A DNA stretch of 64,000 nucleotides from positions 113,567 to 177,566 of the forward strand of contig JAGOBB010000005.1 of the NCBI GenBank assembly GCA_017983615.1. Reading direction: 5' to 3'. The stretch's first letter is position 1. Every line of letters begins with the position of its first letter. The notes beneath the pieces are model-generated. The model was given only the letters and a program-made list of their open reading frames with translations, had not been told where the DNA came from and made no database searches. Made by a program: the position numbers and the translations under genes. Shown in pieces: positions 1,697 through 60,025 of the stretch. The DNA comes from Azonexus sp. Its GTDB lineage: Bacteria; Pseudomonadota; Gammaproteobacteria; Burkholderiales; Rhodocyclaceae.

Positions 1697-2503
1697 TCAC
1701 TTCACTTCGAGCTGGTCGTAAACCGCCGTCGCGACCTTGGCCAGTTCCCCCTTGGCAATGGCGGCGGAGAGCGCGTAGCCGAACTTGCCTTCAACCCAGT
1801 AGAAGACGTTGATCTCGCCTTCGCGGGCGAAGCGGAAGCCGGTTTCCGGCTTGCCGGCACTTTCTGTGGTCACGTATAGCGTCATGCGCTGGCCGGTGGC
1901 GTCCTGATACATGAACTGGGCGACCGGGCCGGCATTGCCGGGCAGCAGGCGACCACCGACCAGTTCGTAGCCGAGCGCGCCCAGCTTGGGCGGCTTTACC
2001 GGCGTGCCAAGGCGCTTGGACAGCCATTTGACCAGCGCTTCCTCCTGATCGGCCGCGACCTCGACCGGCCGGCGCGCGTCGGGGCTATAGACGACATGGG
2101 CGACTGCCGCCTGATGCGGCAGCGGCACGGCCCGAGCCAGTTGCTCGCCGCCCTGATACTGGCCGTGGGCCAGCCAGCCGCCAATGCCGCCGACCATGGC
2201 AACGAGCACGCCGGCCGCCAGGCGTTGCAGGGCCAGGAAATTCAAAAATGGCCTTTTTTTAGGGCCGACCGTAGCATTCAGCGGCTGCACCGTCAGGGCA
2301 TGCAAATGCTCCGGTAACGGCTCGTCGAGTACCGGATCAAACGCCGCCTTGAGCGCAACGTTCTGCGCCAGATAGGCGCGGACCCGCTCGGCATCCTCGG
2401 GATACTCGGCCAGATAGGCTTCGACCTCGGCCCGACGTTCCGGCGACAAGGCGCCGTCGACGTAGGCGTGCAGATCGTCTTCGGTAATATTGAGCGGGCT
2501 CAT
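1697..2503 (-). CDS. anti-sigma factor, RsiW/COG5662-like, carrying the dispersed repeat
   Basis: A 268-residue membrane-bound regulator that should sequester the ECF sigma factor encoded just upstream. The N-terminal 50 residues (ITEDDLHAYVDGALSPERRAEVEAYLAEYPE) are the anti-sigma domain found in the zinc-associated ASD family, although a HxxxCxxC zinc motif is not evident. One membrane helix lies at about 95-113, followed by a periplasmic sensor region. The ATG at 2503 overlaps the sigma stop codon (ATGA), pointing to translational coupling, so I prefer it to a longer upstream reading. Residues 76-89 (NATVGPKKRPFLNF) are encoded by a copy of the dispersed repeat, placed exactly in the linker between the sigma-binding domain and the membrane helix. 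Confidence 0.82.
   Translation of the reverse strand: MSPLNITEDDLHAYVDGALSPERRAEVEAYLAEYPEDAERVRAYLAQNVALKAAFDPVLDEPLPEHLHALTVQPLNATVGPKKRPFLNFLALQRLAAGVLVAMVGGIGGWLAHGQYQGGEQLARAVPLPHQAAVAHVVYSPDARRPVEVAADQEEALVKWLSKRLGTPVKPPKLGALGYELVGGRLLPGNAGPVAQFMYQDATGQRMTLYVTTESAGKPETGFRFAREGEINVFYWVEGKFGYALSAAIAKGELAKVATAVYDQLEVK
2238..2279 (-). repeat. dispersed core/A-T-tract repeat, copy 1 (in anti-sigma gene)
   Basis: On the minus strand this reads GAATGCTACGGTCGGCCC, then an A-run, then GGCC and a T-run, ending GAATTTC. It is one of the copies closest to consensus. It is translated in the sense direction as NATVGPKKRPFLNF. Confidence 0.85.
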
Positions 2504-3000
2504 CGCACGACCCTCAGGTTGGCGGTTGGCTGGCGGCCTTCCATGATCTGGCGCAGGCGTTCGCGTCCGCGCGACAGGCGGGACATCACGGTGCCGACCG
2601 GAATACCCAGCGCCGCGGCAACTTCGGCATAACTCATCTCTTCCAGGGCAACACACAGCAATACTTCCCGCTGGTCATCGGGGAGCTGGCGCAGGGCCGA
2701 CTCGATATCCATCACTTCCAGGCGGTCGGACTGGGTAGCGCGCGTCGGCACGTCGCCGGCCTCCTCGTCGAGCGAATGGGTAGTCAGCGAACCGCGCCGC
2801 AACTGATCGACCCGCAGGTTATGCATGATGCCGAACAGCCAGGCTCTCAGATCGCTCCCCGGCCGCCATTGTGAAAACCGGCTCCAGGCGCGTTCAAGGG
2901 TGTCCTGCACGAGATCGTCCGCCGCCGCACGGTCGCCGAGCATCGCCCGCGCATATCGGCGCAGGCGGGGAAGTTCGGCGAGAATCGTGCGGCTGTCCAT
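2500..3000 (-). CDS. RNA polymerase ECF-type sigma factor
   Basis: A 166-residue sigma-70 family protein of ECF size. Region 2 spans about residues 10-80, with the typical LVQDTLERAWSRFSQW and DLRAWLFGIMHNLRVDQLRR stretches. Region 4 spans about 100-155, with LRQLPDDQREVLLCVALEEMSYAEVAAALGIPVGTVMSRLSRGRERL, a helix-turn-helix that would contact the -35 element (split here only by my description). Its stop overlaps the anti-sigma start by four bases, so the two form one operon. The small Yx(FWY)xxD lipoprotein gene upstream on the same strand may belong to the same regulon. The inducing signal is not visible. Confidence 0.92.
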   Translation of the reverse strand: MDSRTILAELPRLRRYARAMLGDRAAADDLVQDTLERAWSRFSQWRPGSDLRAWLFGIMHNLRVDQLRRGSLTTHSLDEEAGDVPTRATQSDRLEVMDIESALRQLPDDQREVLLCVALEEMSYAEVAAALGIPVGTVMSRLSRGRERLRQIMEGRQPTANLRVVR

Positions 3001-3109
3001 TCAGAAGATTCCTTGGTCAGCCCAAGCGTGACGCGAAGACGAGACGAAGACAGTGCGAACAGCACGGCGAGGCGAAGTCGACAAAGTCACGGTGGGGCTG
3101 ACCGGGGAA

Positions 3110-3496
3110 TCAGGGCTTGGCGACATGCCAGACATTATTGAATCCGTCGCCGGTCTTGTCGCCCGGTTTCTGGTCCTTGGCCCAGAAATACAGCGGCTTG
3201 CCCTTGAAGGCCCATTGTTTCTTGCCATCGTCGCGCATCACGATGCTGTAGTCGCCGCTCGCCGCATCGCCGTCCATCGCGAACAGGGGCGGCCAGTTGG
3301 TGGCGCACGGGCCGTTGCACATGCTCTTGCCGCTGCCGGCGGCATCCTTGTCAAACACGTAAAGCGTCATGCCGTTGCTGCCGGTCAGGACGTCGCCGGA
3401 TGCCATGGCCGGCGACGCGGCGCGGGCACCATAGCCGGAACAGGCAGCCAGCGTGGCCGAGACGAGCAGAGCGAGAAACAGGTTGGTCGTTTTCAT
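3110..3496 (-). CDS. small lipoprotein of the Yx(FWY)xxD (COG4315) family
   Basis: A 128-residue predicted lipoprotein. The signal sequence ends in a lipobox with Cys19 (TLAACS). The mature part carries two copies of the family signature, LYVFDKD and LYFWAKD, and the conserved CNGPCATNWPPL block with two cysteines. The family is periplasmic or outer-membrane attached and has no established function. It often sits beside ECF sigma/anti-sigma genes, as here (109 bases downstream of this gene). The start is set by the signal peptide and the upstream GGAGAT. A link to oxidative or envelope stress would be inference from context only. Confidence 0.85.
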   Translation of the reverse strand: MKTTNLFLALLVSATLAACSGYGARAASPAMASGDVLTGSNGMTLYVFDKDAAGSGKSMCNGPCATNWPPLFAMDGDAASGDYSIVMRDDGKKQWAFKGKPLYFWAKDQKPGDKTGDGFNNVWHVAKP

Positions 3497-3548
3497 GATG
3501 ATCTCCGTTGGTTTTGGGGGGCTACACCGACGTATACGGAAGCCATCA

Positions 3549-4706
3549 TCAATTTATTCCCGCGGCGCGACAAAGTCGCCACAAGGAAGTCACTTCGGCC
3601 GCCCGGGCAGCATGCAGCGGATCGCTCGCATCCTGCGCCTTGGGATGTTTCGGCCGGGTATCGAGGCGGCCGATTACCTTCAATCCGGCAGCCGAAATCC
3701 AGTCCAGCAGCTCCTGGCGTGAGCGCAGGCCGAGGTGTTCGGCGATGTCCGAAATGATCAGCCAGCCCTCGCCATCCGATTCCAGATGTTCGGCCAACCC
3801 GCCGAGAAAGCCGCGCAGCATGCGCGAATCAGGGTCGTAAACAGCATATTCGACCGGCGAGGTCGGTTGCGCCGGCACCCACGGCGGATTGCAGACGACC
3901 AGCCGAGCGCGGCCTTCCGGAAACAGATCGGCCTTGACCACCTCCAATGCTACGGTCAGCCCCAAATTTCGGGCATTTTCGGAAGCACAGGCCAGCGCCC
4001 GTTCGTCCTGGTCGGTAGCCACGATGCGCTTGACCCCGCGCCGCGCCAGCACGGCGGCGATGATCCCGGAGCCCGTGCCGATATCGAAGGCCAGTTCGCA
4101 ACCGGCCGGCATGGGCGCCGTAGCAACGAGATCGACGTATTCACCGCGCACTGGCGAAAAGACGCCGTAATGCGGATAGATGCGCCCCTGGACGGCCGGC
4201 ACCGGCACGCCCTTCTTGCGCCACTCATGGGCGCTGACCACGGCCAGCAGTTCGCGCAGGGAAACCACCGAGTCCTCGCCGTCCGGCGGGCCATAGGCCG
4301 CAATGCAAGCCTCACGAACATCCTGCGCCCGGCGCAGGGGCACCGAATAGTCGGCCGCCAGCGGCACCAGCAGACGCCCAAGCAATGCCGCCCGCAAACC
4401 CTGCTGTTGACGGTGCCGGGCGAAAGCCTCGGCTGGCGTTTTCGCCGGCTTGCCGCGCGCTGCGCCGAAACGACGGTCGGCACGCTTGGTCAGCGCCTGC
4501 AGCAAATGCCGGCCATTGACCCAATCACCGCGCCAAAGCAGCGCCGTCCCGGATTCGAGCTGACGGTAGGCCTCATCGGCGGCGCTGCGGTCGTCGGCAA
4601 TGCCGACCTTCGGGTGTGGCGCGACCCCGGCCTCCGAACGCCAGCGGGCCTGCTTCGCCTCGCCGGCCTCGGTCCAGGCGAGCACGGAAAATTTCGAACG
4701 GTTCAT
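3549..4706 (-). CDS. class I SAM-dependent methyltransferase, PrmC/HemK-like
   Basis: A 385-residue protein. The C-terminal two thirds form a Rossmann methyltransferase: motif I FDIGTGSGIIAAVLARRG, motif II near IVATDQDERAL, and the catalytic-loop signature VVCNPPWVP that marks methyltransferases acting on amide or amino nitrogen (the PrmC/HemK/RlmG group). About 190 N-terminal residues are not recognisable. I chose the ATG at 4706 (MNRSKFSVLAW), because upstream in-frame codons run into the divergent promoter region. The dispersed repeat overlaps residues of about 242-253 (RNLGLTVALE), read antisense. The substrate cannot be told from sequence. Confidence 0.8.
   Translation of the reverse strand: MNRSKFSVLAWTEAGEAKQARWRSEAGVAPHPKVGIADDRSAADEAYRQLESGTALLWRGDWVNGRHLLQALTKRADRRFGAARGKPAKTPAEAFARHRQQQGLRAALLGRLLVPLAADYSVPLRRAQDVREACIAAYGPPDGEDSVVSLRELLAVVSAHEWRKKGVPVPAVQGRIYPHYGVFSPVRGEYVDLVATAPMPAGCELAFDIGTGSGIIAAVLARRGVKRIVATDQDERALACASENARNLGLTVALEVVKADLFPEGRARLVVCNPPWVPAQPTSPVEYAVYDPDSRMLRGFLGGLAEHLESDGEGWLIISDIAEHLGLRSRQELLDWISAAGLKVIGRLDTRPKHPKAQDASDPLHAARAAEVTSLWRLCRAAGIN
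3944..3983 (+). repeat. dispersed repeat, copy 2 (in methyltransferase gene)
   Basis: CAATGCTACGGTCAGCCCC is followed by AAATTTC, GGGC and ATTTTC. The core is intact and the tail degenerate. It is antisense to the methyltransferase gene and contributes GLTVAL to a family-typical segment, so part of the match may be shaped by protein constraint. Confidence 0.7.
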
Positions 4707-8057: not shown

Positions 8058-8060
8058 TGT

Positions 8061-13831: not shown

Positions 13832-14710
13832 ATGGTCCGCATCCAGTTCGCTATCGACTTGCAATACGAACTGAATTTTCCGGGCGCCGATTTCGTTTTC
13901 AACATCCATGCGGCGCCCACCGCCAGCCAGCGCATCGTCAGCGAAAGCCTGTTCGTCAGCCAGGCTGTGCCGACGACGATTCAGGCCGACCCGCTGACGC
14001 ACGCCCGCTACCTGCGCCTGACCGCCCCCGCCGGCCCGCTGCACGTCAGCTACCAGGCGCTGGTCGATATCGACCATCACATCGGCAATCCCGATCTCAT
14101 CCAGGAAACGCCGGTCGCCCAGTTGCCGCTGTCGGTACTCGGCTATATCTACCCCAGCCGCTACTGCCAGTCCGACCGCCTCGGCGCCCTGTCGATGAGC
14201 GAATTCGGCCACCTGCCCAAGGGCTATCGCCGCGTTGAGGCGATCCGCAACTGGGTCAACAAGCACGTTGCCTTTCGCAGCAACACCAGCAGTTCGACGA
14301 CCTCGGCGCTCGACACGGTGACCGACCGCGTCGGCGTCTGCCGCGACTTCGCCCACCTGATGATCGCCATCTGCCGTGCCCTGAGCATTCCCGCCCGCTT
14401 CACCACCGGCATCGACTACGGCGCCGACCCGGCGCTCGGGCCAACCGATTTCCACGCCTACGTCGAGGTCTTCCTCGATGGCCGCTGGTACCTGTTCGAC
14501 CCGTCCGGCACCGCCATCCCAATGGGCTTCGTCCGCCTCGGCACCGGTCGCGATGCCGCCGACGTTTCCTACGCCACCATCTTCGGCAGCGTCACCTCGC
14601 CGCCGCCGCTGATTTCCGTCACCGCCATCACCGAACCCGGCCGCCCGTGGGAATTGCCCCGCCACCGGCCGGAGGCGATTTCGACCGATGCTACGGTCAC
14701 CCCTCTTTAA
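13832..14710 (+). CDS. transglutaminase-like cysteine protease-fold protein
   Basis: A 292-residue cytosolic protein with an N-terminal beta-rich region and a transglutaminase core. The catalytic triad is visible: Cys in RVGVCRDFAHLM, His in TDFHAYVEVFLDGRWY, and Asp in LFDPSG. These proteins (COG1305) usually act as peptidases or ligase-like enzymes, often on isopeptide or D-amino-acid-containing substrates. The preceding 281 bases (13551-13831) hold the leuA hairpin and no recognisable gene. The last residues (TDATVTPL) and the stop codon are encoded by a dispersed repeat copy, so the C-terminus was probably set by that element. Confidence 0.85.
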   Translation: MVRIQFAIDLQYELNFPGADFVFNIHAAPTASQRIVSESLFVSQAVPTTIQADPLTHARYLRLTAPAGPLHVSYQALVDIDHHIGNPDLIQETPVAQLPLSVLGYIYPSRYCQSDRLGALSMSEFGHLPKGYRRVEAIRNWVNKHVAFRSNTSSSTTSALDTVTDRVGVCRDFAHLMIAICRALSIPARFTTGIDYGADPALGPTDFHAYVEVFLDGRWYLFDPSGTAIPMGFVRLGTGRDAADVSYATIFGSVTSPPPLISVTAITEPGRPWELPRHRPEAISTDATVTPL

Positions 14711-14730
14711 ACCCCATTTTTCAAAAGTAA
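14686..14730 (+). repeat. dispersed repeat, copy 3 (at transglutaminase stop codon)
   Basis: CGATGCTACGGTCACCCCT is followed by TTTAAA, CCCC and ATTTTTCAAAAG. It encodes the last residues and the TAA stop of the transglutaminase gene and runs to within 14 bases of the infA start. Confidence 0.8.
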
Positions 14731-15004: not shown

Positions 15005-15780
15005 GCCGCCACCAAGCCGCGACTTCGTCCCGGACGGAACTGCCAGGTATCGTCGTAGTAGTCCGGGTTCTCGCTGTCCGGCGTAACGCCGGGAATGCCG
15101 AGCAGCGGCAGGGGCTGAAAATCGCGCGGCCGGGTGAATTGGCCGCTTTTGATTTTTGCCGAAAAAATGGCATCGACCGTAGCATTCAGCGCCTCGGTGT
15201 CGAGCGCCAGCCATTCGTCGGGGATTTCATGCAGTGCAGCCTTGGCGGTCAACCCGCGAAACGGCTTGAGCAACTGCTCGTAGGTCGCGTGGCCGAAAAT
15301 GACAAAGCGCATGCAACGTTTCACCTCGGCACGCCGCTCGACGAACAATTCCTTCCAGCGAAAGCCGCGCAGCAGGTCGAGCAGTTCCGGCCGACTGGAG
15401 AGGACGACGATGCCGCATTCGTCGAAGTGGGTCAGCGCATCGCGGGTTGTCCCGCGCGCTTCACCCGGCGCCTGCATGGCGCGCATGTGGGCGGCGCTGA
15501 TGGCGATCTTGGTTTGCGGAAAGCTCAGCCAGACCAAGGCGTTGAAGAAATCGTGCCAGTTGTCCGGGCGGGTCTCGACCTCGCCACTTTCCCAGATCCG
15601 GCACTCGTAGACCAGACCGTCCGGCCGGGGCGGCACGAAGCGGACCCGCTGGCCATTTTCGGTTTCGATCGGGAAGCGCTCGGCCAGTTCGGCCACCGCC
15701 CGCGTATCGGCAGTGGCCGGCAGGCGCTCAAGCCAAGGCCGGAGCGGCGCAAACAGCGGCGATGCGTACGACGGACTCAC
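15001..15780 (-). CDS. DUF3025 domain protein carrying the dispersed repeat
   Basis: A 259-residue protein whose central [19 protein letters not shown] and AHFDECG-like ([13 protein letters not shown]) blocks are typical of DUF3025, a proteobacterial family without known function. It starts with ATG at 15780, overlapping nothing upstream, and its own start lies four bases into the next gene's territory (the stop of this gene overlaps the infA stop). It is the distal gene of a lipoprotein-DUF3025 unit (ATGA overlap at 15777-15780). Residues of about 198-215 ([18 protein letters not shown]) are encoded by a repeat copy with an expanded middle. Confidence 0.75.
15136..15187 (-). repeat. dispersed repeat, copy 4 (in DUF3025 gene)
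   Basis: On the minus strand this reads GAATGCTACGGTCGATGCC, then ATTTTTTC, GGC, AAAAATCAAAAG and CGGCCAATTC. The core is intact; the distal tracts are rearranged and about 8 bases longer than consensus. It is translated in the sense direction. Confidence 0.75.
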
Positions 15781-18132: not shown

Positions 18133-18495
18133 ATGCAGGCAAAGGCCAACGATACCACCACCGCCCGCGGCCGCGAAGCCGAAGATCGGGCTGCCAAGCA
18201 TCTCGAATGCTACGGTCACCGGGTCATTTCGCGCAATTTCCGGATTCGCGGCGGCGAGATCGACCTGATCTGCCGCGATGGCAAGGTGCTGGTTTTCGTC
18301 GAGGTACGGCAACGCAGCCGCAGCGATTTCGGTGGCGCCGGGGCGAGCATCACGGCCAGCAAGCGCCGCCGCATTGTCCTCGCCGCACAGCACTATCTGG
18401 CCGGCAAGCCGGCCTGCGACTGCCGTTTCGACTGCGTACTGATCGACGGCGAACGACTCGAATGGATCAGGAATGCGTTTGCTGCTGACGATTAG
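18133..18495 (+). CDS. yraN: YraN family (UPF0102) putative endonuclease
   Basis: A 120-residue protein with the family pattern GREAEDRAAKHLE, the nuclease-like core NFRIRGGEIDLICRDGKVLVFVEVRQRS (catalytic E, D, E-x-K-like residues of the PD-(D/E)XK fold) and ACDCRFDCVLIDG. The biochemical role is unproven. I chose the ATG at 18133 because the homologous region starts there, although the frame is open upstream. Residues of about 24-36 coincide with the dispersed repeat core, yet the conserved NFR..GEIDL block is intact. It overlaps the start of the HIRAN gene by 23 bases. Confidence 0.9.
   Translation: MQAKANDTTTARGREAEDRAAKHLECYGHRVISRNFRIRGGEIDLICRDGKVLVFVEVRQRSRSDFGGAGASITASKRRRIVLAAQHYLAGKPACDCRFDCVLIDGERLEWIRNAFAADD
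18204..18243 (+). repeat. dispersed repeat, copy 5 (in yraN)
   Basis: GAATGCTACGGTCACC is followed by CGGGTCATTTCGCGCAATTTCC. The 11-base core is exact; the tail is poorly matched apart from two A/T stretches. It is translated as LECYGHRVISRNF, a frame different from other copies. Confidence 0.6.
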
Positions 18496-20214: not shown

Positions 20215-22011
20215 TCCTGGCAGCCAGGTCGCCAGGAAAGGCAGCGCTGAAATGGTCAGGGCACCAAGGAACATCGCCGCCACGGCCGGCACCACCGCTG
20301 CGGCAACATAACGGATCGGCTTGGCGAACATCGCCGAGGCGAAATAAATGTTCATGCCGGCCGGCGGGCAGAGGAAACCCATCTCGATGTTGGCCAGAAA
20401 AATAACGCCAAAGTGCACCGGATCGACGCCATACGCCAGCGCCACCGGCAACAGCAGCGGCACCAGCACAACGATGGCGGCGTAGATTTCCATCAGCGCC
20501 CCGGCCACCAGCAGGAACAGGTTCAGCGCGATCAGAAAGGCGAATTTGTTGGGCAAAACCGATTGCACCCACTCGATGGCGGCGTCTGGAATGCCGGCGT
20601 CGATCAGGAAGTTGGTCAGGCCCAGCGCCATGCCGAGGATCAGCATGATGCCACCGATGACCTGGGCGCATTCGACTAGCGCCCGTGCGACGCCCCGGCC
20701 ATCCAGCTCGCGGTGCGCCACCGTCTGTGTCAGCACGGCGTAGGCAGCCGTCAGCGCTGCGCTTTCGGTCGGCGTCGCCAGGCCGCTAACCAGCGAGCCG
20801 ATGGCCACCACCGGCGCCATGATTTCCCACTTGGCGGCCCATGCGGCGGCGCCGGCGGATTTCAAATTTGGCCGTTTTTTGAGGCCGACCGTGGCATTTG
20901 TGCCTTTCAGGAAACCGCCCACCGTCAGCAGGAAGCCGACCATGACCAGCGCCGGCAGCAGCCCGGCCAGGAACATCGTGTTGATGGGCACGCGGGCGAT
21001 GATGGCGTACATGATCAGCGGCACCGACGGCGCCAGCAGCACGCCGAGCGCGCTGGCACTGGTCACCAGCCCGATGCCGCGGCGTTCGGGAAAACCGGCC
21101 TGAGTCAGCAAGGGCAGCAGCAGACCACCCAGTGCCAGGATGGTCACGCCGCTGCCGCCGGTCAAGGCGGTAAAGCCGGAACAAAGCAGGGCGCCGGCCA
21201 CCGCCGTGCCGGTTGCCCCGCCACCGAACAGCGCGGTGAACAAGGTGCCCAACCGGGCTGCCGCGCCGGTCCGGGCGAAGATCAGGCCGGCCAGCGTGAA
21301 CAGCGGCAAGGCGGGCAGCGAGGGATTGACCGTGATCTGGTAGTGGCTGAGCGGCACCGAGGCGAGCGGCTGGCCTTCCTGCCAGAACAGGGCCAGCGCC
21401 AAGCCACCGAGTACCGCAAAGACCGGCGCACCACAGAGCAGCACGGCGAGCAGCCACAGTGCGAGAGGCCAAAGGGGAAGCGTCGCGCCGTCAAAATGGG
21501 CGGCAAACAGCCAGCCGAACAAGGGCAGGATGACCGCGATCACCAGGCGCCCGGCCGTCGCCGACGTCAGTCGCGCGGCGATTTTCGCGCCGAGCAACGC
21601 AAAGCCGGCCGGCATCGCGGCCTGGACCAGCCAACCGGGAACGCCGTAGGCCAGCGTCTGCCGCGCTTCCATTTCGCTGACCACGAAGGTCCAGCTGGCC
21701 TGCGCCAGCATGCCGCAGAGCAGCGCCGAACTGGCTTGCGCGAACACGCTGGCGGCAAGCCTGATCCTGTAGTCGTGCGCACCGGCAAAGCCGGCGCCGA
21801 GGGAGGTCAGATGGCCGCCGCGCTCGGCGACCAGGGCGCCGGCCATGGCGAGCACCAGCCCGAGGTGCTGGACCAGTTGCGGCGCATTCTCGACCCCCTG
21901 GCCGAACAGCGGCCGCAAGACAATCTCTGCCAGCGGCAACAGCAGCATCAGGGCCAGCGCCGCGCCGGCCAGCCCGGCGTCTAAAGCGCCGAATCGGCGC
22001 AACCAGACCAC
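20200..22011 (-). CDS. TRAP transporter fused small/large permease (DctQM)
   Basis: A 603-residue membrane protein. The N-terminal 170 residues form the four-helix DctQ subunit (LVQHLGLVLAMAGALVAERGGHLT). The rest is the DctM large subunit of about 12 helices (FTALTGGSGVTILALGGLLLPLL, APSVPLIMYAIIARVPINTMFLAG, MEIYAAIVVLVPLLLPVALAYGVDPVHFG, CPPAGMNIYFAS). The complex imports an organic acid bound by DctP, driven by an ion gradient. It starts with GTG at 22011, sharing one base with the dctP stop. Residues of about 371-385 (TNATVGLKKRPNLKS) come from the dispersed repeat and fall in a cytosolic or periplasmic loop of DctM. Confidence 0.9.
   Translation of the reverse strand: MVWLRRFGALDAGLAGAALALMLLLPLAEIVLRPLFGQGVENAPQLVQHLGLVLAMAGALVAERGGHLTSLGAGFAGAHDYRIRLAASVFAQASSALLCGMLAQASWTFVVSEMEARQTLAYGVPGWLVQAAMPAGFALLGAKIAARLTSATAGRLVIAVILPLFGWLFAAHFDGATLPLWPLALWLLAVLLCGAPVFAVLGGLALALFWQEGQPLASVPLSHYQITVNPSLPALPLFTLAGLIFARTGAAARLGTLFTALFGGGATGTAVAGALLCSGFTALTGGSGVTILALGGLLLPLLTQAGFPERRGIGLVTSASALGVLLAPSVPLIMYAIIARVPINTMFLAGLLPALVMVGFLLTVGGFLKGTNATVGLKKRPNLKSAGAAAWAAKWEIMAPVVAIGSLVSGLATPTESAALTAAYAVLTQTVAHRELDGRGVARALVECAQVIGGIMLILGMALGLTNFLIDAGIPDAAIEWVQSVLPNKFAFLIALNLFLLVAGALMEIYAAIVVLVPLLLPVALAYGVDPVHFGVIFLANIEMGFLCPPAGMNIYFASAMFAKPIRYVAAAVVPAVAAMFLGALTISALPFLATWLPGVASY
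20858..20900 (-). repeat. dispersed repeat, copy 6 (in dctQM)
   Basis: On the minus strand this reads AAATGCCACGGTCGGCC, then an A-run (TCAAAAAAC), GGCC, AAATTTGAAATCC. There is one mismatch in the core. It is translated in the same frame as copy 1 and gives a near-identical peptide in an unrelated protein. Confidence 0.82.
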
Positions 22012-29102: not shown

Positions 29103-29177
29103 TGTGATTTGTAATTGTTGCATTGCAGCGAAGCACAAATATTAGCAGGTTTGCGCCGGCTGTCGCCGGTCGGCGAC

Positions 29178-29216
29178 GAATGCTACGGTCGGCCGAAAAA
29201 AACGGCAAAAAGCGGC
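29178..29216 (+). repeat. dispersed repeat, copy 7 (intergenic, upstream of slipin)
   Basis: GAATGCTACGGTCGGCCG is followed by an A-run, CGGC, AAAAAGCGGC. It lies in the divergent spacer between the MFS and SPFH genes, 66 bases before the SPFH start codon, so it could sit within a promoter. Confidence 0.8.
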
Positions 29217-29281
29217 TTGCCGGCGTCATTGGCGCGCAACAGGCCCGGTGCTATGCTGAAAAAAATCCGTCAGGAGGCAAC

Positions 29282-30884: not shown

Positions 30885-30929
30885 TGAATTTGAAAAATGG
30901 CCATTTTTTCGGGCCGACCGTAGCATTCC
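30885..30929 (-). repeat. dispersed repeat, copy 8 (intergenic, upstream of uvrA)
   Basis: On the minus strand this reads GAATGCTACGGTCGGCCCG, an A-run, TGGCC, ATTTTTCAAATTC. It is the copy closest to the inferred consensus. Its middle, AAAAATGGCCATTTTT, is a perfect 16-base palindrome. It lies in the divergent spacer about 50 bases before the uvrA start codon. Confidence 0.88.
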
Positions 30930-40853: not shown

Positions 40854-43538
40854 TCAGTTGGCCGAGGTATTCGATTCGGCGGCTGCGGCCAGCAGGCGGC
40901 GCCGCTCGGGCAGGCGGAGCAGGGGCAGGACTTCGCAATATTGCAGCCCCTTTTCGTCGGCGAAGACGACGCCGGCCCGGCCCGCCTTGACCTCGCTGGC
41001 CACGGCGTGCAGACGCTCGCGCCAGTGGGTAATGACGGCAATCCAGTCGGGAAATTCCGCCGGATCGAAAATTTTCTGCTTGTCGTCACCGATCCCCTGG
41101 ACGCCGGGCAAGATGTCCTTTTCGTCGGCGACGCCGGCAAAGCCCGGCTTGTCGGGCAGGACCTTGGCAAAGACAACGGCCGCCACTTCGTCATTGACCA
41201 GCGCGGCGTAAATCGGCAACTGCGGCTCGGTGATGCGCTGATCGGCCCAGTTTTTGGTGTCGATGGCGGCGCCGGTCTTGTAGTCGATGATGACCTGCCG
41301 GCCGTCGGCCAGTTGATCGATGCGATCGACGACCATGCGCACCTTGATGCCCTCGATCTCGACCTCGGCTGGCTGCTCGCAGGCGATGACCTCGAAGGCC
41401 TGACCGCGCTTGTCTTCGACGGCCAGCCAGAGGTCGAGCAGCTTGGCCAGGCGAGCCGCTTCGAGTTCGCGGAAGCGGGCCGGCAGGATTGTCCGGCGGT
41501 CGAGTTCGAAAGTCTGCAGGGCCTTGGCGACGGCCTCGGCGATGGCTTCCTGACGGGCTCCCCCGGATAGCGCCGCCAGCGCCTCCGACGAGGCCACCGC
41601 TGTCCATAAGGCTTCCAGTGCTTCATGAACCAGCGTGCCGCGGGCGGCCGGGTCGAGGCCCTCGACCGGCTCGTCCATCGCCTCGCCGCCGAGCCGGAAC
41701 TGGTAGTAGGCCCAGGCCGGACAGATAGCCTGGGCGCGCAGCAGCCAGCTGCCGCCGGAAACCTTCTCGCCCGCGGCCACCGGCGGCGCCAGCGCGTCGT
41801 CGAGCAGAGCCAGCGCCGCCGGAGCCTCGGCGGCCAGTTGGCCGGCCACCGTAACCACCTTGCCCGGCACTTCAGCGGCGCACGAAATGCCGGCGATCAG
41901 CGGGCTCGGGCGCAACACCCGGTTGCCATCGGCCTGCGCCCAGGAAAAGATGACCGTCGGCGCCGAATCCAACAAACGGGCGTGCACCCGCTGGGCGAAA
42001 TCCAGTTCGACCTCGGCGCTGGCGTGCGCCGACCCGGCGCTGCGCTGCAACTCGGCCGGCAACAGCGGGCTGGGCCGGGGCGGCGGCGGCCACAGGTCGT
42101 CGTTCATGCCCATTACCCACAGCGCATCGAATTCGAGACCGGCGCTTTCGAGCATGCCGAGCACCTGGATCGCCGGCCGGCCGCGCGTTTCCGGCTGAAA
42201 CAGGCGCTGGCGGCAGAGTTGCGACAAACGGCGCACTGCTTCGGCAAAGGCCAGCGGTCCGAGCAGGGCGTCGAGCCGGCCAAGGCCGTCGAGAACCTCG
42301 CCAAAGGCGCGATGGGCCTGGAATTCATGGCTGGACAGCGGGCGGTCTCCTGGCCAGCCGGTCGCCTGCAGGCAGGCCCGGAAAACGCCAGCCCATTGCC
42401 CCGGTAACAGCTTCCGGCTGGCTGTACTGGCCGTGGTCACGAAGGCGTCGAGCGCCGCTACCGTCTGCGGGCAAAGAGGCGGTTCGCTCTCGGCCAGGCG
42501 CCCGGCCAGCCGGAGCAAGGCCGGCAAGGTGGTGAAATACGGCAGGTCGCGGCGCAGTGCCGCATCAAGCCGCGCCCGGCCATCGGCCTCGGATTCGGCG
42601 GCCGACCAGCCGCTGGCCAGCAGCAGTGCCGACAAGCGGCTCTGCTCGACCTTGGCCCGGCCGCTACCGAGCGCCAGCAGATCAAGGGCGACGCGGATCA
42701 GCGGCAGATCGGCCAGCGCCCGGCCCAGCGAAAAGTTGAAGCAGCGCGGCACTTCGGCCGTATCGGGACGGATCAGCGCCGGATGCAGGGCGTCGTCGAG
42801 CAGAAATTCCAGTCGGTCACGCACGCCGGCCAGGTCGGGCGCCACGATGCCCAGCCGGGAGGCCGGATTCTCGGCCAGCCGGGTCTGCGCCCAGGCGACG
42901 ACGGCCGAACATTCGGCATCAATGTCTTCACAGGGTCGAACACCACAAATGCTACGGTCGCCCCCTTTTTTTGCCCAATTTTCAAATTCGACGCCACGCG
43001 CCGCCAGCGCCGCCATCAGATCGCGCTCCAGGGGCGTGTAGCGGTCGAAACCGGCGAAGCAAATCGTCGTCGGCAAGGCGAAATGACCAGCCTCGATCAA
43101 TCCGATCACTTGCCGGTGCAGGCCGGCCGTATCGATCCAGCCGCTGCTCCGGCAGCGCTTTTCGAATTCCGCCTGCCAGCCGACGAACAGCCTTGCCTCA
43201 TCGGAGAGCAGGGCACCGCCCGGCCTGAGCTTCCAGACGCGGCACAGCGCCTGCGCCTCGGCCGCCGACGCCGCCATGCCCTGGATGTCGAACAGCGGCG
43301 CCGCCTCGGTCAATGACCCGGCGATGACCTTTTCCCAGAGCAGGCGTTCGGCGAAAGCATCCAGCGCCACCGGCAGTTCGGCGACACCGGTCAGCATCGC
43401 TTCGTCGGCCAGACTGCCCAGCCACTGGCCCAGCGTCAGCGCCGGCCGGGTGCGCCAGACCGCCGCCTCGCCAGGCAACTCGCCGCGCAGGGTCTGCGCC
43501 AGGCGGGTTGTGGCGCACAGGGTCAGGCAATCGCTCAA
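40854..43538 (-). CDS. AddB-like PD-(D/E)XK nuclease/inactivated helicase (TIGR03623-like)
   Basis: A protein of about 894 residues, the usual partner of the AddA-like helicase in beta/gammaproteobacteria ('probable DNA repair protein'). Helicase motifs are degenerate, as expected. The C-terminal nuclease is intact: GTLVHEALEALW, VRMVVDRIDQLADGRQVIIDYKTG and EPQLPIYAAL. The iron-sulphur cysteine set of classical AddB is missing (only SWLLRAQAICPAWAYYQF and YCEVLP remain). I chose the TTG at 43538 (MSDCLTLCATT), preceded by GAGGCCGGC, because the longer frame overlaps the comEA-like gene as low-complexity nonsense. Residues of about 183-197 (EFENWAKKGGDRSIC) are repeat-derived. Confidence 0.82.
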   Translation of the reverse strand: MSDCLTLCATTRLAQTLRGELPGEAAVWRTRPALTLGQWLGSLADEAMLTGVAELPVALDAFAERLLWEKVIAGSLTEAAPLFDIQGMAASAAEAQALCRVWKLRPGGALLSDEARLFVGWQAEFEKRCRSSGWIDTAGLHRQVIGLIEAGHFALPTTICFAGFDRYTPLERDLMAALAARGVEFENWAKKGGDRSICGVRPCEDIDAECSAVVAWAQTRLAENPASRLGIVAPDLAGVRDRLEFLLDDALHPALIRPDTAEVPRCFNFSLGRALADLPLIRVALDLLALGSGRAKVEQSRLSALLLASGWSAAESEADGRARLDAALRRDLPYFTTLPALLRLAGRLAESEPPLCPQTVAALDAFVTTASTASRKLLPGQWAGVFRACLQATGWPGDRPLSSHEFQAHRAFGEVLDGLGRLDALLGPLAFAEAVRRLSQLCRQRLFQPETRGRPAIQVLGMLESAGLEFDALWVMGMNDDLWPPPPRPSPLLPAELQRSAGSAHASAEVELDFAQRVHARLLDSAPTVIFSWAQADGNRVLRPSPLIAGISCAAEVPGKVVTVAGQLAAEAPAALALLDDALAPPVAAGEKVSGGSWLLRAQAICPAWAYYQFRLGGEAMDEPVEGLDPAARGTLVHEALEALWTAVASSEALAALSGGARQEAIAEAVAKALQTFELDRRTILPARFRELEAARLAKLLDLWLAVEDKRGQAFEVIACEQPAEVEIEGIKVRMVVDRIDQLADGRQVIIDYKTGAAIDTKNWADQRITEPQLPIYAALVNDEVAAVVFAKVLPDKPGFAGVADEKDILPGVQGIGDDKQKIFDPAEFPDWIAVITHWRERLHAVASEVKAGRAGVVFADEKGLQYCEVLPLLRLPERRRLLAAAAESNTSAN
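42946..42990 (+). repeat. dispersed repeat, copy 10 (in addB-like gene)
   Basis: AAATGCTACGGTCGCCCCC is followed by a T-run, GCCC, AATTTTCAAATTC. The core and terminal CAAATTC match consensus well; the central A-run is replaced by a T-run. It is antisense to the gene and translated as EFENWAKKGGDRSI. Confidence 0.82.
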
Positions 43539-43566: not shown

Positions 43567-44277
43567 TCAGTAGGACGCCGCCGGCTGGGCCGGCTTGGCG
43601 GGTGCCGCGGGCTTCGCCGGAGCCGCCGGCGCAGCAGGCCTGGCCGTGGGCGAAGCCGGGGCAGCATCGTTGGCGGCCGGTCTGGCCTGCGACGGGGCGG
43701 CGGGCTTGGCCATCGGCACGGCTGGGGCAGCCGGCTTGACCGCATTGGCAGGCTGGGCGGGCGTGGCCGGCTTGGCCGGACCGGCAGGTGCAGCAGGAGC
43801 CGGCGCCGCCCCTTTGCTTTCCATCATGGGTTTGGCGGGGCTGGCCGGACGGGCTGGTTCGGCTGCCAGCGACTTGCTCGCCGGAGCGGCAGGCTTGCCG
43901 GGCGCGGCTGGAGCGGCCGGTCGAGCCGGTTCTACGTTCGCCCTAGTCGTCTGGCGAGCCGGCGGCAAGGCCATAGGCTTGGCGGCATCGGGCGCCGGGC
44001 GTGCGGCGGATGCCGCAACACCATTGCCCACGGTGATCTTGCCGCGCAGCTTATCCACCAGATTGTCGGGGAAATTCGGAATGTTTCTCAACTCGCCGAC
44101 GGACTTGAACGGGCCATGCTCCGAACGATATTTGATGATCGCTTCCGCCCTCGCTTCGCCTATACCCTTCAGCGAATCCAGCTCTTCCTTGGTCGCCGTG
44201 TTGATGTTGATCTGAGCCAGGGCCACACCGGCCCACAGCAGGCAGGAGGCGGCAACCATCAGGAAACGTGATTTCAT
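43567..44277 (-). CDS. ComEA-like helix-hairpin-helix protein with long Pro/Ala tail
   Basis: A 236-residue exported protein. Signal peptide MKSRFLMVAASCLLWAGVALA is followed by a ComEA helix-hairpin-helix pair (ININTATKEELDSLKGIGEARAEAIIKYR, VGELRNIPNFPDNLVDKLRGKITVG) at residues 22-88. The remaining 145 residues are Ala/Pro/Lys repeats (PAAPAKPAAPAKPAQPAA). ComEA binds incoming DNA in the periplasm during natural transformation. Stand-alone ComEA domains are short (about 90 residues), so the tail is unusual. It may span peptidoglycan. It is 28 bases upstream of the addB-like gene, giving an operon of DNA-binding and recombination functions. Confidence 0.88.
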   Translation of the reverse strand: MKSRFLMVAASCLLWAGVALAQININTATKEELDSLKGIGEARAEAIIKYRSEHGPFKSVGELRNIPNFPDNLVDKLRGKITVGNGVAASAARPAPDAAKPMALPPARQTTRANVEPARPAAPAAPGKPAAPASKSLAAEPARPASPAKPMMESKGAAPAPAAPAGPAKPATPAQPANAVKPAAPAVPMAKPAAPSQARPAANDAAPASPTARPAAPAAPAKPAAPAKPAQPAASY

Positions 44278-44333
44278 GCTTTGTTCTCCGCGAAAGTGAG
44301 TGACGCAGTATGCCATTCGCCGGCCGTCGCCCA

Positions 44334-44370
44334 AAAACAAAAAGCCCTGCCGAGGCAGGGCTTTTCGGGA
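44334..44370 (-). terminator. intrinsic terminator of the OmpA gene
   Basis: On the minus strand AAAAGCCCTGCC pairs with GGCAGGGCTTTT around a TC loop, followed by TTTGTTTTTGG. It lies 13 bases beyond the OmpA stop codon and before the comEA-like gene. Confidence 0.9.
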
Positions 44371-48952: not shown

Positions 48953-51900
48953 TGCGCCGCCTCGCCCTTCTTGCCGCCCTCGCCGTTCTCGGCACCGCCG
49001 GCTGGCTGACGACCAGCGAAAGCGGCCTGGGTGCCCTAGCCGGGCTGGCCGCGAGCGCAAGCGGCGAACGCCTGCAAGTCGAAGCGGCCAGCGGTCGCCT
49101 GCTCGGCGGCTTCACCTTCGGCCGATTGCGCTGGCAGGATGCTGACCGGCAAATCGAGGCCGTTGATCTGAGTGTCGACTGGGCGCCGGCCGCCCTGCTG
49201 CACGGCACGCTGCAGATTGCCACGCTGAGCGTCGATCAGTTGCGCCTGACACAACGGCCAAGCAGCACGGCGACGCCCGTGCCGACCGACCTGCGCCTAC
49301 CGCTGGCAGTCGATATCGAAAAACTGGCCGTATCCACGTTGCGCTGGGACGATGCGCTGACCGTCACCGATCTCGTCGCACGCCTGAGCAGCGATGGGCG
49401 CCGCCACCGGATCGACGGCTGGCGCGCCCGGACAGCCGGAATCGCGTTCAGCGGCAACGCCACGCTCGACGGCGCGGCTCCCTTCCCGCTCGACGCCAAC
49501 GCCCAGATCGCCGGCCTGCTCGACAAACGGCCGCTGGCCGTCGCGCTGACCGCCGTCGGACCGCTCGACCGCCTGACAATCTCGGCCGTTGCCACCGAGG
49601 GCGTGGCCGGCCATGCCGAAATCGAGCTGACGCCCTTCGCTAGCGCCGCCTTCGCCCGCGCCCGCGTCCAGCTCGACGACATCGATCCGGCCACCTGGCA
49701 GGACGGTGCGCCACAGGCCCGACTCAGCATCGTCGCCGACGTCCAGCCGCAGGGAGAGGGCATCGTTGGCAGCTTCGGCCTGACCAATCACCAGCCCGGC
49801 CCGCTGGACAAGCAGCGCCTGCCGCTCGAGACGCTGGCAGGCACGCTGGAATGGCAGGGCGAAGTCGCCCGGTTCGCCAGCCTGCATGCCGCCGTGCCCG
49901 GCAAAGGTGAGCTGACCGGCCACGGCGAGTGGCGCAGCGGCGCGTTGACGCTGGCCTTTGACGTCCGGCGCCTGCAAGCCGCCCAAATCGCCACAATGCT
50001 ACGGTCGCCCCCTTTAAATGGCCAATTTTCAAGTTCCGTCGGCGGCGACCGGCAAAACCTCAACGTCGACCTGAGCGGCGCCGGTTTCCGCCTGCGGGCC
50101 GAGGCCATGCACGCCGAGGGCCGCGTCACCCTGCCGCAACTGCGGCTCGAATCCGGCGATGCACGGCTGACCGCGCACGGCGAGATCAAGCTCGACGGCG
50201 AGCGGCGCTTTACCGCCGAAGGCGAATTGCAGCGCTTCGACCCGAGCCGCTTCGGCAAACTGCCGGCGGCGCAGATCAATGCCCGCCTGAAGGCTGAAGG
50301 GCGACTCGCGCCGCACCCGGTCGCCGATGCCTCTTTCGTCCTGCAGGACAGCCGGCTGGCCGGGCAGCCACTAAACGGCGAGGGACGCCTGGCCGTCGAC
50401 TGGCCACGCATCCCGCGCCTCGACATCCGGCTCGCCGCCGGCGCCAACCGGCTGACCGCCCAGGGCGCCTTCGGCCAGGCCGGCGACCGGCTGACAGTCG
50501 ATGTCGTGGCGCCGCAACTCGCCCCCTACGGCCTGGAAGGCGGCCTCGACTCTCACCTCGAATTGAGCGGTCAAGCCCAAAGCCCGCGTCTGGCCGTTGC
50601 CATCGATGCGGAACGGCTCGGCCTGCCCGGCGTCATCCGTCTGAGCGGTCTGAGCCTGAAGGCCGACCTTGGCGGCGAGGCGATTTCGCCGCTCGCGCTG
50701 CGTCTCGACATCGCCGGCCTCAGCACACCCGAACAGCCAGGGCTGGCCCGCGCTGTTCACCTTCTGGCTGAAGGCAGCAATCAAGCCCACCGCCTGAGCG
50801 CCAGCGCCGAACTGGCCGACGATAGCCGGCTCAGCCTCGCCGCTGAGGGCGGACTGACCGCCGACCGGACGACCTGGCAGGGCAAGCTGACCGAAGCCAG
50901 ACTAAGCAGCCCGGAGCCGGCACGCCATATCGCCCTCGCTGCCCCAGCCCCATTGACGTTGGCCGCAACGGGCTGGAGCCTCGGCCCGGCGCGGCTAGCC
51001 GGCAATCCACTCGACTGGCAGGCCACGGTGCAGGCCGGCGCCGATAGCCGGCAATTGCGGGCCAGCCTGAGCGCCCGCGGTAGCCGCCTCGGCCAGGTCG
51101 ACGGCGAACTGAACGCCGCCATGCGCAGCCCCTGGTCGCTCGACCGGCTGGCCCGCTGGCAGGGGAGCCTGAAAGCCGAAGTAGCCGCCCTTGGCTGGCT
51201 GGGCGAAGTGATCGGCGAAGGCTGGCAGAGCGAAGGCCGGGGTACGGGCGAACTGCAACTCGCCGGCACGCCGGCCACGCCGCTGCTCAGCGGGAAGTTC
51301 CGCGGCGAGCAACTGGCCCTGCGCCTACCCGAGCAGGGCCTCCACCTGGCACGCGGCGAACTCGATGTCGATTTGCGCGACAACCGGCTGCGCATCAACC
51401 GGCTTGGTTTCGACAGCCTGTTGCAGCCTTTGCCGAGAACCCTGCGCGTCGAAGCCCGGGATGACCTGTCGGCCCTGACCAAAACCCCCGGCCGCCTCGA
51501 CATCACCGGCGAAATGCGGGTCGACCGGGCCCTGGCAAAAGGCCCGGACGCCGAAGACAGCGCCTTCCTGGACTTCCGGCTCGACCGTCTCGGCGCCTTC
51601 CAGCTGGCGGACCAGTGGGTAACCGTTTCCGGCAATGGACGGCTGACTTGGCAGGGCGGCACGCTGGGCGCCCGTGGCAAGCTGGCGGTCGACGCCGGCT
51701 ACTGGCAACTGGCACCCGGCGGCGCCCCCCGGCTGTCCGACGATGTCGTCGTCAAACGTCCCGGCGGCGAGAAAACGAAAGCCGCCCTGCGGCCCAAGCT
51801 CGATCTCGACATCAGCACCGATCTCGGCCGCAACTTTCTGTTCCAGGGCGCCGGCCTGTCCAGCCGCTTGGGCGGCGAAGTCCGCATCACCGCCCAGGGC

Positions 51901-58801: not shown

Positions 58802-58828
58802 GCTGCGCCTCCGTTTGTCCCGGAAATC

Positions 58829-58876
58829 TCAAATGCTACGGTCGGCCCCAAAAAAAGGCTCATTTCGAAATTCCTT
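58829..58876 (+). repeat. dispersed repeat, copy 12 (between RND adaptor and permease genes)
   Basis: AAATGCTACGGTCGGCCCC is followed by an A-run, GGCTC, ATTTCGAAATTCC. It fills most of the 58-base spacer and runs a few codons into the adaptor's C-terminus (read there as NEISK, antisense). Confidence 0.84.
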
Positions 58877-60008
58877 CGACGACCTTCACGGCATCGCCGT
58901 CGGCCAGGAAACCGGCGCCGGTCTCGACGACCCGCGCCCCGGCAGCCAGTCCGGCAACGATTTCGACCCGTTCGCCAAGGCGGCGGCCAAGCTCAACCTT
59001 GGTCTGCGCCACGCGATCCTCGCCCTCCAGTCTGAACACATATGCAAAGCCTTCGCGCAGGACCAGCGCCGATTGCGGCAGCGTCAGGGCGGGGCTTTGT
59101 GCCAACTGGAATTCGCCGCGGGCGAACATGCCGGCGCGAATGGCGCTCGTCGCCGGCAGGTCGACGTAGACCAGCCCGCTGCGCGTCTGCGGATCGACGC
59201 TGGGCGCGACGGCGCGCACCACCCCCTTGACCGTCTCACCACTCGGCGCCGTCAGCGTGGCGACCACGCCGGCGCTGACCTTGCCGAGATCGGCCGATGG
59301 CACTTCAGCCCGCCACTCCAGGCGACCGCCACGAATCAGTCGGAACAACTCCTGCCCGGGCTGGGTCAGCGAGCCGACCGTCGCACTGCGCGCCGAAATC
59401 ACGCCGTCGTCCGGCGCCAGCACGCCGGTCTTGTCCATTTTCAGCCCCGCCGCCTGCTGGCGCGCCCGAGCGGCGGCCAGACGGGCCAGCGCCGTATGCT
59501 CGGCCGTCTGGTATTGCGTGTTCAGTTGCGAGCTGTAGAAACCCTTTTCCTTCAGCTCCCTGGCCCGTTCGGCATTGGCCTTGGCTTCGGCGGCGCTGGC
59601 TTCCAGCTCCGCGACTGCCGCTTTGGTTTCAGCCAGTTCGCTGGCCACGGTATCGCTGGCGATGCGGGCCAGCACCTGGCCTTTCTTAACCTGATCGCCG
59701 ACCTGGACACGCACCTCGGTGATCCGGTAGTTGGCGATCTCGGGGCCAATAATGGCCTCCTGCCAGGCGACGACATTGCCGTTGGCCGGCAGGACCAGGG
59801 GCCAGTCCAGGCGCTGCGGCGCCGTCAGACGGACGGTCAGCGCTGGACGCGCTGCATTGGCGGGCCTCTCCGGCTCCATTGGTGCCGGCGCATCGGAGTG
59901 AGAGAAGAAGTAGGTGCCGGCTGCAACCAGCGCGACAAGCGCCAGCGCGATGCGGGATTTTCGTCCGGCCAGCAGCCCCAAAGATGTGTTTTTCATGCCA
60001 AAACTCAT
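58860..60008 (-). CDS. RND efflux periplasmic adaptor (membrane fusion protein)
   Basis: A 382-residue adaptor with an N-terminal membrane anchor (IALALVALVAAGTYFFSH). The lipoyl/barrel halves (WPLVLPANGNVVAWQEAIIGPEIANYRITEVRVQVGDQVKKGQVLARI and GVISARSATVGSLTQPGQELFRLI) surround an alpha-helical hairpin (TVASELAETKAAVAELEASAAEAKANAERARELKEKG). A beta-barrel/MP domain closes the protein. It links the RND permease to an outer-membrane channel. The ATG at 60008 adjoins a partial repeat copy; the ATG at 59996 (MKNTSLG) is equally plausible. Confidence 0.92.
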   Translation of the reverse strand: MSFGMKNTSLGLLAGRKSRIALALVALVAAGTYFFSHSDAPAPMEPERPANAARPALTVRLTAPQRLDWPLVLPANGNVVAWQEAIIGPEIANYRITEVRVQVGDQVKKGQVLARIASDTVASELAETKAAVAELEASAAEAKANAERARELKEKGFYSSQLNTQYQTAEHTALARLAAARARQQAAGLKMDKTGVLAPDDGVISARSATVGSLTQPGQELFRLIRGGRLEWRAEVPSADLGKVSAGVVATLTAPSGETVKGVVRAVAPSVDPQTRSGLVYVDLPATSAIRAGMFARGEFQLAQSPALTLPQSALVLREGFAYVFRLEGEDRVAQTKVELGRRLGERVEIVAGLAAGARVVETGAGFLADGDAVKVVEGISK

Positions 60009-60025
60009 GTCGACCGTAGCAATTG
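59996..60025 (-). repeat. dispersed repeat, copy 13 (partial, at RND adaptor start)
   Basis: On the minus strand this reads CAATTGCTACGGTCGACATGAGTTTTG. The core has one mismatch, and the tail has one A/T-rich stretch but no GGCC. It overlaps the adaptor's start codon region. Confidence 0.5.

What the first reader, a model, noticed from the sequence alone, without database searches (positions are those of the whole stretch)
2238..60025. A dispersed 11-base core plus A/T-tract repeat, 13 copies in 64 kb, resembling a DNA-uptake signal
Reading both strands, I find the core ATGCTACGGTC exactly 11 times and with one mismatch twice (copies at 2238, 3944, 14686, 15136, 18204, 20858, 29178, 30885, 39042, 42946, 49993, 58829 and 59996). 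It is nearly always preceded by A and followed by G or A. A random 11-mer is expected about 0.03 times on both strands of 64 kb under uniform base use. Most copies continue with a GGCCC block, an A-run, GGCC, and ATTTTTCAAATTC. A rigid core followed by two phased A/T tracts is the architecture of Pasteurellaceae uptake signal sequences (core plus two A/T segments). Copies lie on both strands, inside and between genes. The ComEA-like gene in this window makes competence plausible. No such signal is known to me for this group.
Basis: partly seen in the sequence, partly recalled or inferred. Interest (0 to 1): 0.88.

Follow-up and report, generated by a model that had tools for sequence, protein, structure and literature searches.

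The report
A third likely DNA-uptake signal family
A 40-base DNA tag is scattered hundreds of times through this bacterium's genome and, in different 'dialects', through several close relatives, and it looks like the self-recognition tags that two other bacterial families use when taking up free DNA; uptake itself has not been tested here.

Summary
The whole genome holds 468 exact cores, 234 per strand, against 0 for the reversed pattern. A profile of 84 copies shows a sharply bounded ~42-base unit: core, G/C block, A/T tract, GGCC, second A/T tract. Related species use other dialects around ACGGTC. A dialect-neutral pattern finds 150 or more sites in 18 of 76 genomes of the genus; 373 genomes of 67 other genera of the family stay in the control range. 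Dialects largely follow a UvrA gene tree. Many sites occupy orthologous positions in species with different dialects, while two motif-poor species carry other sequence there: substitution and rewriting, not insertion. Copies are more evenly spaced than chance. I conclude that this is most likely a self-DNA uptake signal in a third bacterial family, built like the Pasteurellaceae signal and split into dialects. Uptake was not tested, the receptor was not identified, and two candidate pilins failed to track the motif.

The parts
2238..2279 (-). uptake-signal-like unit, core exact, inside a zf-HC2 (anti-sigma-like) gene
   Evidence: dialect-I copy in G197, dialect-II copies in G195 and G196 (one 1-base gap each)
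3945..3986 (+). unit, core exact, inside a methyltransferase-like gene (opposite strand)
   Evidence: gapless in G197, G195, G196, G112, but ACGGTC only in G196, one base off in G195, absent in G197 and G112
14686..14727 (+). unit, core exact, over the 3' end and stop codon of a transglutaminase-like gene
   Evidence: no clean counterpart in five relatives aligned
15146..15187 (-). unit, core exact, inside a DUF3025 gene
   Evidence: exact core in G197; only GCGGTCGA in G195 and G196
18205..18246 (+). unit, core exact, inside a UPF0102 gene
   Evidence: dialect I in G197, II in G195 and G196, none in G112 and G154, all gapless
20858..20899 (-). unit, core with one mismatch (ATGCCACGGTC), inside a DctQ-DctM transporter gene
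   Evidence: dialect II in G196 without gap and in G195 with a 24-base gap
29178..29219 (+). unit, core exact, between genes or at the 5' end of an ORF (29123-30157) whose start is uncertain
   Evidence: counterparts in G197 and G195 with 1-2 gap columns
30887..30928 (-). unit, core exact, between genes, upstream of the uvrA-like gene
   Evidence: one-base variant in G197
39043..39084 (+). unit, core exact, inside a UvrD-helicase/PD-(D/E)XK gene (opposite strand)
   Evidence: dialect I in G197, II in G161, G195, G196, none in G112, all gapless
42947..42988 (+). unit, core exact; gene assignment of the place uncertain
   Evidence: dialect I in G197, II in G161, G195, G196 (0-2 gap columns), none in G112
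49994..50035 (+). unit, core exact, inside a TamB gene
   Evidence: dialect I in G197, GCTACGGTCAACC in G161 and G195, none in G112
58831..58872 (+). unit, core exact, between a 1021-aa ORF (RND-pump-like by eye, not scanned) and an HlyD-family gene
   Evidence: dialect II in G161 and G195
59983..60024 (-). unit, core with one mismatch (TTGCTACGGTC), weak first tract, over the start of the HlyD-family gene
   Evidence: only GCGGTCGAC in G161 and G195
43567..44340 (-). ComEA-like gene (helix-hairpin-helix competence protein) with a proline/alanine-rich tail
   Evidence: TIGR00426 over its cut-off; only the 87 residues from MKSRF were scanned

Best explanation
The motif is a self-DNA uptake signal of naturally transformable bacteria. 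A surface DNA receptor, probably a type IV minor pilin, binds the core (shared heart ACGGTC plus a dialect-specific left half and a few bases to the right). The two A/T tracts, about one and two helical turns downstream of the heart, help bend or melt the DNA for entry. Because fragments with a good copy are taken up and recombined more often, mutations towards the motif spread and hundreds of copies build up, mainly by point substitution, wherever genes tolerate them (molecular drive). When the receptor's specificity shifts, old sites are rewritten in place to the new dialect; when competence is lost, they decay. Shown here: abundance, architecture, even spacing, dialects that largely follow a gene tree, mainly substitutional origin, rewriting at orthologous sites, scarcity in some relatives. 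Inferred: uptake, receptor, role of the tracts, direction of change, loss of competence in motif-poor species.
For: 468 exact cores and 0 reversed. The top-scoring over-represented 10-mer, found de novo, lies in the core in G000, G215 and G197. Core plus two A/T tracts with sharp edges; the same tail in unfiltered hits of G215, G197, G161, G166 and G196. Exact copies outnumber one-mismatch copies 84 to 14, a trait described for USS and DUS (PMC1626085, passages). Spacing CV 0.67 against 0.95 for random placement; 1 of 2000 simulations as even. No strand bias: 234/234; 40 of 84 copies agree with local GC skew. Three dialects with limited overlap that largely follow a UvrA tree: 7 label changes against 15.2 shuffled. 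Orthologous places: ACGGTC within the aligned 46 columns in 41 of 54 pairs from dialect-I sites to dialect-II genomes and 46 of 64 in reverse; 0 of 21 and 0 of 35 against motif-poor G112 and G154; random control places 8 of 892. Sites read in all three frames and on both strands of genes. Type IV pilins and a ComEA-like gene are encoded. Molecular drive by biased uptake is an explanation in print for such repeats (PMC1939737, passages).
Against: No uptake or transformation data. No receptor found: a ComP_DUS-type pilin (PF16732) is in 70 of 76 genomes of the genus, 17 of 18 loaded and 53 of 58 others; a short four-cysteine pilin is in 11 of 18 loaded and 13 of 58 others and missing from the single-contig loaded genome G218. 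Only ComEA and pilins were looked for; ComEC, DprA, PilQ, PilT and the like were not. Small gaps are commoner at motif sites than at control places: gapless 23 of 56 against 223 of 254 for pairs with motif-poor genomes, and 130 of 207 against 565 of 638 among motif-rich genomes, so some sites involve indels. Gaps of 10 or more are also somewhat commoner (12 of 263 against 7 of 892). Not all sites are shared: several window sites lack a counterpart even in a same-dialect or loaded relative (3947 in G197; 14688). Dialects overlap to a degree: dialect-II genomes hold 4 to 73 ATGCTACGGTC, dialect-III genomes 11 to 30 ACGGTCAACCGG. Motif-poor genomes are not clustered on the tree. Closely set inverted pairs, common in Neisseria and Haemophilus, were not seen in the G000 sample (shortest of 80 spacings 487 bases).
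Confidence: 0.86

Rival explanations
1. A small mobile element (MITE or REP-like) that multiplied by insertion.
For: Strong consensus and near-restriction to a genus would fit a young element. Gaps of 10 bases or more are somewhat commoner at motif sites than at controls, 12 of 263 against 7 of 892.
Against: No palindrome in dialect I and no conserved flank; 251 of 263 orthologous alignments lack a gap of 10 or more, and orthologous sites carry different dialects, which insertion does not explain; motif-poor relatives often align through the place; 8 of 13 window copies lie in genes supported by Pfam; no viral contig carries a 19-base dialect-I pattern.
Confidence: 0.03
2. Binding site of an intracellular chromosome-organising or recombination protein (Chi-, KOPS- or nucleoid-type site).
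For: Hundreds of evenly spaced copies; A/T tracts are typical of DNA-bending sites (general knowledge).
Against: No orientation bias, unlike Chi or KOPS (recalled); the signal is at control level in many species of the same genus, so it is not an essential chromosome function there; rewriting of the dialect at orthologous places needs a drive that such sites are not known to have (recalled).
Confidence: 0.07
3. Regulatory or terminator element (transcription-factor regulon, intrinsic terminator).
For: Four of 13 window copies lie outside the genes that I used, and A/T tracts resemble promoter or terminator parts.
Against: 8 of 13 window copies are inside Pfam-supported genes, on either strand; no hairpin in the consensus (by eye; not folded); no closely set inverted pairs among 80 spacings; 468 sites are many for one regulon.
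Confidence: 0.03

Closest known systems
Uptake signal sequence (USS) of Pasteurellaceae, Apl type ACAAGCGGT and Hin type AAGTGCGGT
   Same: Hundreds of copies on both strands inside and between genes; short rigid core followed on the 3' side by two A/T-rich segments; more exact than one-mismatch copies; origin mainly by substitution; subclade-specific core variants with a fixed inner core (PMC1626085, passages and one section). Cores share CGGT; Apl segment 3 AAAATTTTGCAAAT resembles AAAATTGAAAT of dialect II.
   Different: Longer core (11-12 bases) with a different left half (ATGCT, TGCY, TC) and a conserved right side (GGCC or RAC); A/T tracts start 7 and 18 positions after the core's last base, centres ~10-11 apart, against 12 apart in Hin-type USS; 160 copies per Mb in G000; a betaproteobacterium by the titles of related records; uptake untested.
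DNA uptake sequence (DUS) of Neisseriaceae
   Same: Genome-wide self-tags with dialects that follow phylogeny around a conserved heart (PMC3630211, passages); both in Betaproteobacteria (record titles for our side; recalled for Neisseriaceae); ComP-type pilins present.
   Different: Core unrelated (GCCGTCTGAA, no flanking motifs); DUS counts reach thousands; no closely set inverted pairs in the G000 sample; the ComP-type pilin here does not track the motif.

Membership tests
Pasteurellaceae-type USS | Hundreds or more copies, far above expectation, both strands | tested here: met
   468 (234/234), reversed 0; Markov 0.09-1.5 against 84 in 457 kb
Pasteurellaceae-type USS | Rigid core followed 3' by two A/T-rich segments about a helical turn apart | tested here: met
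   unfiltered exact cores of G000; unfiltered hits of five other genomes by eye. The consensuses were filtered for tracts and do not count as evidence for them
Pasteurellaceae-type USS | Inner core GCGG | tested here: not met
   The shared heart is ACGGTC; it shares CGGT only
Pasteurellaceae-type USS | Copies arise by substitution, not insertion | tested here: met
   with an excess of small gaps at motif sites, told in the report
Pasteurellaceae-type USS | Found in Pasteurellaceae | tested here: not met
   related records are titled beta proteobacterium
Uptake signal in the functional sense | Competent cells prefer DNA with the motif | not testable with these tools
   needs an uptake assay
Uptake signal in the functional sense | Dialects congruent with phylogeny and a fixed inner core | tested here: met
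   one gene, 28 genomes: dialect II one group (85/89), all labels 7 changes against 15.2 shuffled; I and III are not strict groups (G175 nests in I, motif-poor G203 in III)
Uptake signal in the functional sense | Competence machinery present | tested here: inconclusive
   ComEA-like gene and type IV pilins found; the rest not searched
Neisseriaceae DUS/ComP | ComP receptor whose presence tracks the signal | tested here: not met
   PF16732 in 17 of 18 loaded and 53 of 58 other genomes
Mobile element (MITE/REP) | Spread by insertion of a whole unit | tested here: not met
Mobile element (MITE/REP) | Target-site duplications | not tested
   not searched copy by copy; the profile shows no conserved flank

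The most novel reading that the evidence does not exclude
The motif of this betaproteobacterial genus and the Pasteurellaceae USS are versions of one recognition system, inherited from far back or carried across by transfer of the receptor: both read CGGT(C) followed by two A/T segments on the same side, and the second segment of dialect II (AAAATTGAAAT) resembles that of the Apl-type USS (AAAATTTTGCAAAT). The genus would then also show how such a receptor's specificity drifts, with dialects caught at the same orthologous sites.
Probability: 0.13. Interest if true: 0.93.

Novelty: new variant of a known kind. Interest (0 to 1): 0.87.

Why it matters
A 2025 paper states that only two families are known to discriminate self DNA by such signals (PMC12616744, introduction). 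A third, with single-contig genomes, motif-rich and motif-poor species side by side, and several dialects at identical chromosomal places, would make three open questions testable: how uptake signals start, how receptor and signal change specificity together, and whether the signals accumulate by uptake-driven drift alone. If uptake is confirmed it also offers a handle for genetic transformation of these bacteria.

Tried and rejected
Mobile element: opposed by orthologous alignments and dialect exchange. Strand-polar chromosome site: no bias. Receptor candidate 1, ComP_DUS-type minor pilin: in 70 of 76 genomes, in two kinds of cluster, neither of which tracks the motif in the genomes I looked at. 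Receptor candidate 2, a short four-cysteine pilin at the pilA-type locus of G161, G195, G147 and G197, first seen as a contrast with G112 and G154, failed genus-wide: 11 of 18 loaded, 13 of 58 others (Fisher p 0.0035, not corrected for kinship), absent from G000, G215 and single-contig G218. Two clusters that I fetched as possible receptors look by eye like secretion-type pseudopilins (not scanned). A first UvrA tree was void because loci were on mixed strands; redone. The script stopped with an error after printing its count table and part of the consensuses. Literature, open-licence PMC text only: uptake-sequence terms with Rhodocyclales or Rhodocyclaceae gave 0 papers; the core letters gave 10 papers, unrelated by their titles; broader searches (top listings of 50, 322, 157 and 49 papers) showed no title on an uptake sequence in this group. 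I saw PMC12616744 (abstract, introduction), PMC1626085 (passages and one section), PMC3630211 and PMC1939737 (passages); all others as listings.
Full report
What was checked. The window lies in a 2.92-Mb, 34-contig genome, G000, estimated 85.7% complete, which holds 468 exact cores, 234 on each strand, and none of the reversed pattern.

Anatomy. I took 457 kb of G000 (window included, about 16%) and aligned all 84 exact copies. Conservation starts at -1 (purine, 90%) and 0 (A, 95%), covers the 11-base core, then G or A, a G/C block to +17, an A/T tract at +18..+23 (83-96% A+T), GGCC at +25..+28, a second tract at +29..+33 (89-100% A+T) and a weaker A/T stretch at +36..+39. Outside these limits columns look like background. 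Of 84 copies 77 have both tracts, against 0.45% of random places. Exact cores (84) outnumber one-mismatch cores (14, of which 6 are A to T at position 1). Expected numbers under Markov models of order 0 to 5 lie between 0.09 and 1.5. Copies are more even than random (spacing CV 0.67 against 0.95; 1 of 2000 simulations as low) and show no strand preference (40 of 84 agree with local GC skew).

Who has it. In 150 genomes of the family the exact core was at chance, 0 to 5, except in G000 itself (4 of the 150 are of the window's genus). Among all 76 genomes held of the genus it is graded: G000 468, G215 385, G197 328, then 73, 71, 48, 28 and down to none. De novo counting of over-represented words in 120-200 kb stretches of five other species gave, beside some unrelated repeats, related words: in G161, G166 and G196 TGCYACGGTCAACCGGAAAA, in G147 TCACGGTCGAC, in G112 none. 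A dialect-neutral pattern (ACGGTC, 7 free, 4 A/T, 6 free, 4 A/T) finds 150 or more sites in 18 of 76 genomes of the genus, 40 to 110 in seven and 0 to 37 in 51, with reversed controls of 0 to 16. In 373 genomes of 67 other genera the maximum is 9 (G125, its own control 2) and the control maximum 12.

Dialects. ACGGTCAACCGG is present 97 to 462 times in eleven genomes and 1 to 3 times in the three dialect-I genomes; CACGGTCGACCGT 402 and 420 times in G147 and G201, 75 in G156, 30 in G205, at most 10 elsewhere. That last core is nearly its own reverse complement, so single places can be counted on both strands and these counts are inflated. Overlap is limited but real: dialect-II genomes hold 4 to 73 ATGCTACGGTC, because their left half is looser, and dialect-III genomes hold 11 to 30 ACGGTCAACCGG. 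On a tree of the UvrA gene of 28 genomes (of 30 searched; G215 and G209 left out as partial) dialect II is one group (85/89), and all five labels together need 7 changes against 15.2 when shuffled. Dialect I (two genomes) contains the intermediate G175, dialect III (four) contains the motif-poor G203, and the motif-poor genomes are no more clustered than by chance, which fits repeated loss but shows no direction; the tree is unrooted and rests on one gene.

How sites arise and change. The region is syntenic in several relatives. At window site 39045, G000 and G197 read ATGCTACGGTCAGCGG, G161 and G195 TTCCCACGGTCAACCGG, G196 TTCCTACGGTCAACCGG, and motif-poor G112 other letters, all without a gap; 18207 behaves alike (there against G112 and G154), and 49996 too except for two gap columns in G112. 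Others do not: 3947 has ACGGTC in G196 only, and 14688 has no clean counterpart anywhere. Over all stretches used (275 query sites with tracts, in seven genomes), ACGGTC lies within the aligned 46 columns in 24 of 30 pairs I to I, 41 of 54 I to II, 46 of 64 II to I and 52 of 59 II to II (at the same column without a gap 18, 24, 31 and 38), but in 0 of 21 and 0 of 35 pairs with G112 and G154; with dialect-III G147 in 1 of 2 and 1 of 1; at random control places in 8 of 892 pairs, G147 left out (1 of 30 there). Pairs share sites and are not independent. Gaps of 10 bases or more occur in 12 of 263 motif pairs and 7 of 892 control pairs. Gapless pairs are fewer at motif sites: 23 of 56 against motif-poor genomes (controls 223 of 254) and 130 of 207 among motif-rich ones (controls 565 of 638). 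So substitution is the main route, with some indels, much as reported for Haemophilus USS, where 24% of protein alignments held gaps, most outside the segment encoded by the core (PMC1626085, section 7).

Genes. 8 of 13 window copies are in genes with Pfam support, on either strand and in three frames; four are outside the genes that I used (29180 may lie at the 5' end of an ORF); one (42949) is uncertain. The window encodes a ComEA-like protein. The prepilin N-terminal motif is found 8 to 19 times in each of 12 genomes examined.

Receptor. I could not name one. The ComP_DUS family is in 70 of 76 genomes of the genus, 17 of 18 loaded and 53 of 58 others. A short four-cysteine pilin with no Pfam domain over its cut-off beyond the N-terminal motif is enriched in loaded genomes (11 of 18 against 13 of 58) but missing in G218, a single-contig loaded genome, and in G000 and G215.

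Comparison. [quoted passage not shown] In architecture it works like a USS; it fails the USS inner core GCGG and its relatives are titled betaproteobacteria, so I do not file it as a USS. The word dialect is used as for DUS (PMC3630211, passages). The link to uptake is inference from this pattern, at 0.86.

Limits. No experiment; genomes unnamed; several are incomplete metagenome assemblies; the competence gene set was not surveyed; only part of each genome was read as letters; the tree rests on one gene; literature cover is open-licence papers only.

Noticed in passing
G204 and G179 (sister genomes on the UvrA tree): 242 and 104 hits of the dialect-neutral pattern but only 45 and 16 of ACGGTCAACCGG and 0 and 1 of CACGGTCGACCGT: possibly a further dialect.
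   Followed up: partly
L257 2247-2594 and 1768-2112; L253 1568-1939 and 2246-2584; L268 1255-1593; L270 1403-1744: Short type IV pilins (112-123 aa) with four cysteines and no Pfam domain over cut-off beyond N_methyl (two scanned) sit at the pilA-type locus of four motif-rich species, where G112 and G154 have longer two-cysteine pilins.
   Followed up: partly
G031 (genus code g32), contigs C6, C13, C38: Five hits of the dialect-neutral pattern (control 2), all followed by AAC or GAC as in dialects II and III: possibly remnants or imports outside the genus.
   Followed up: no
G112:C1, e.g. 290888, 665368, 1932023: A motif-poor species keeps 30 hits of the neutral pattern (control 1) and 11 of ACGGTCAACCGG (control 4): imports from competent relatives or relics.
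   Followed up: no
window 43567-44340 (-): The ComEA-like ORF has a long proline/alanine-rich tail (257 aa in all) that coincides with repeat family D1 and two of three copies of D11.
   Followed up: no
G147 and G201, dialect III core CACGGTCGACCGT: The dialect III core contains a perfect 12-base palindrome (ACGGTCGACCGT), unlike the other dialects.
   Followed up: no
G161 and G196 stretches (L105-L114, L138-L144): Separate over-represented words built from GAGCAG or GAAGCA units, probably tandem repeats.
   Followed up: no
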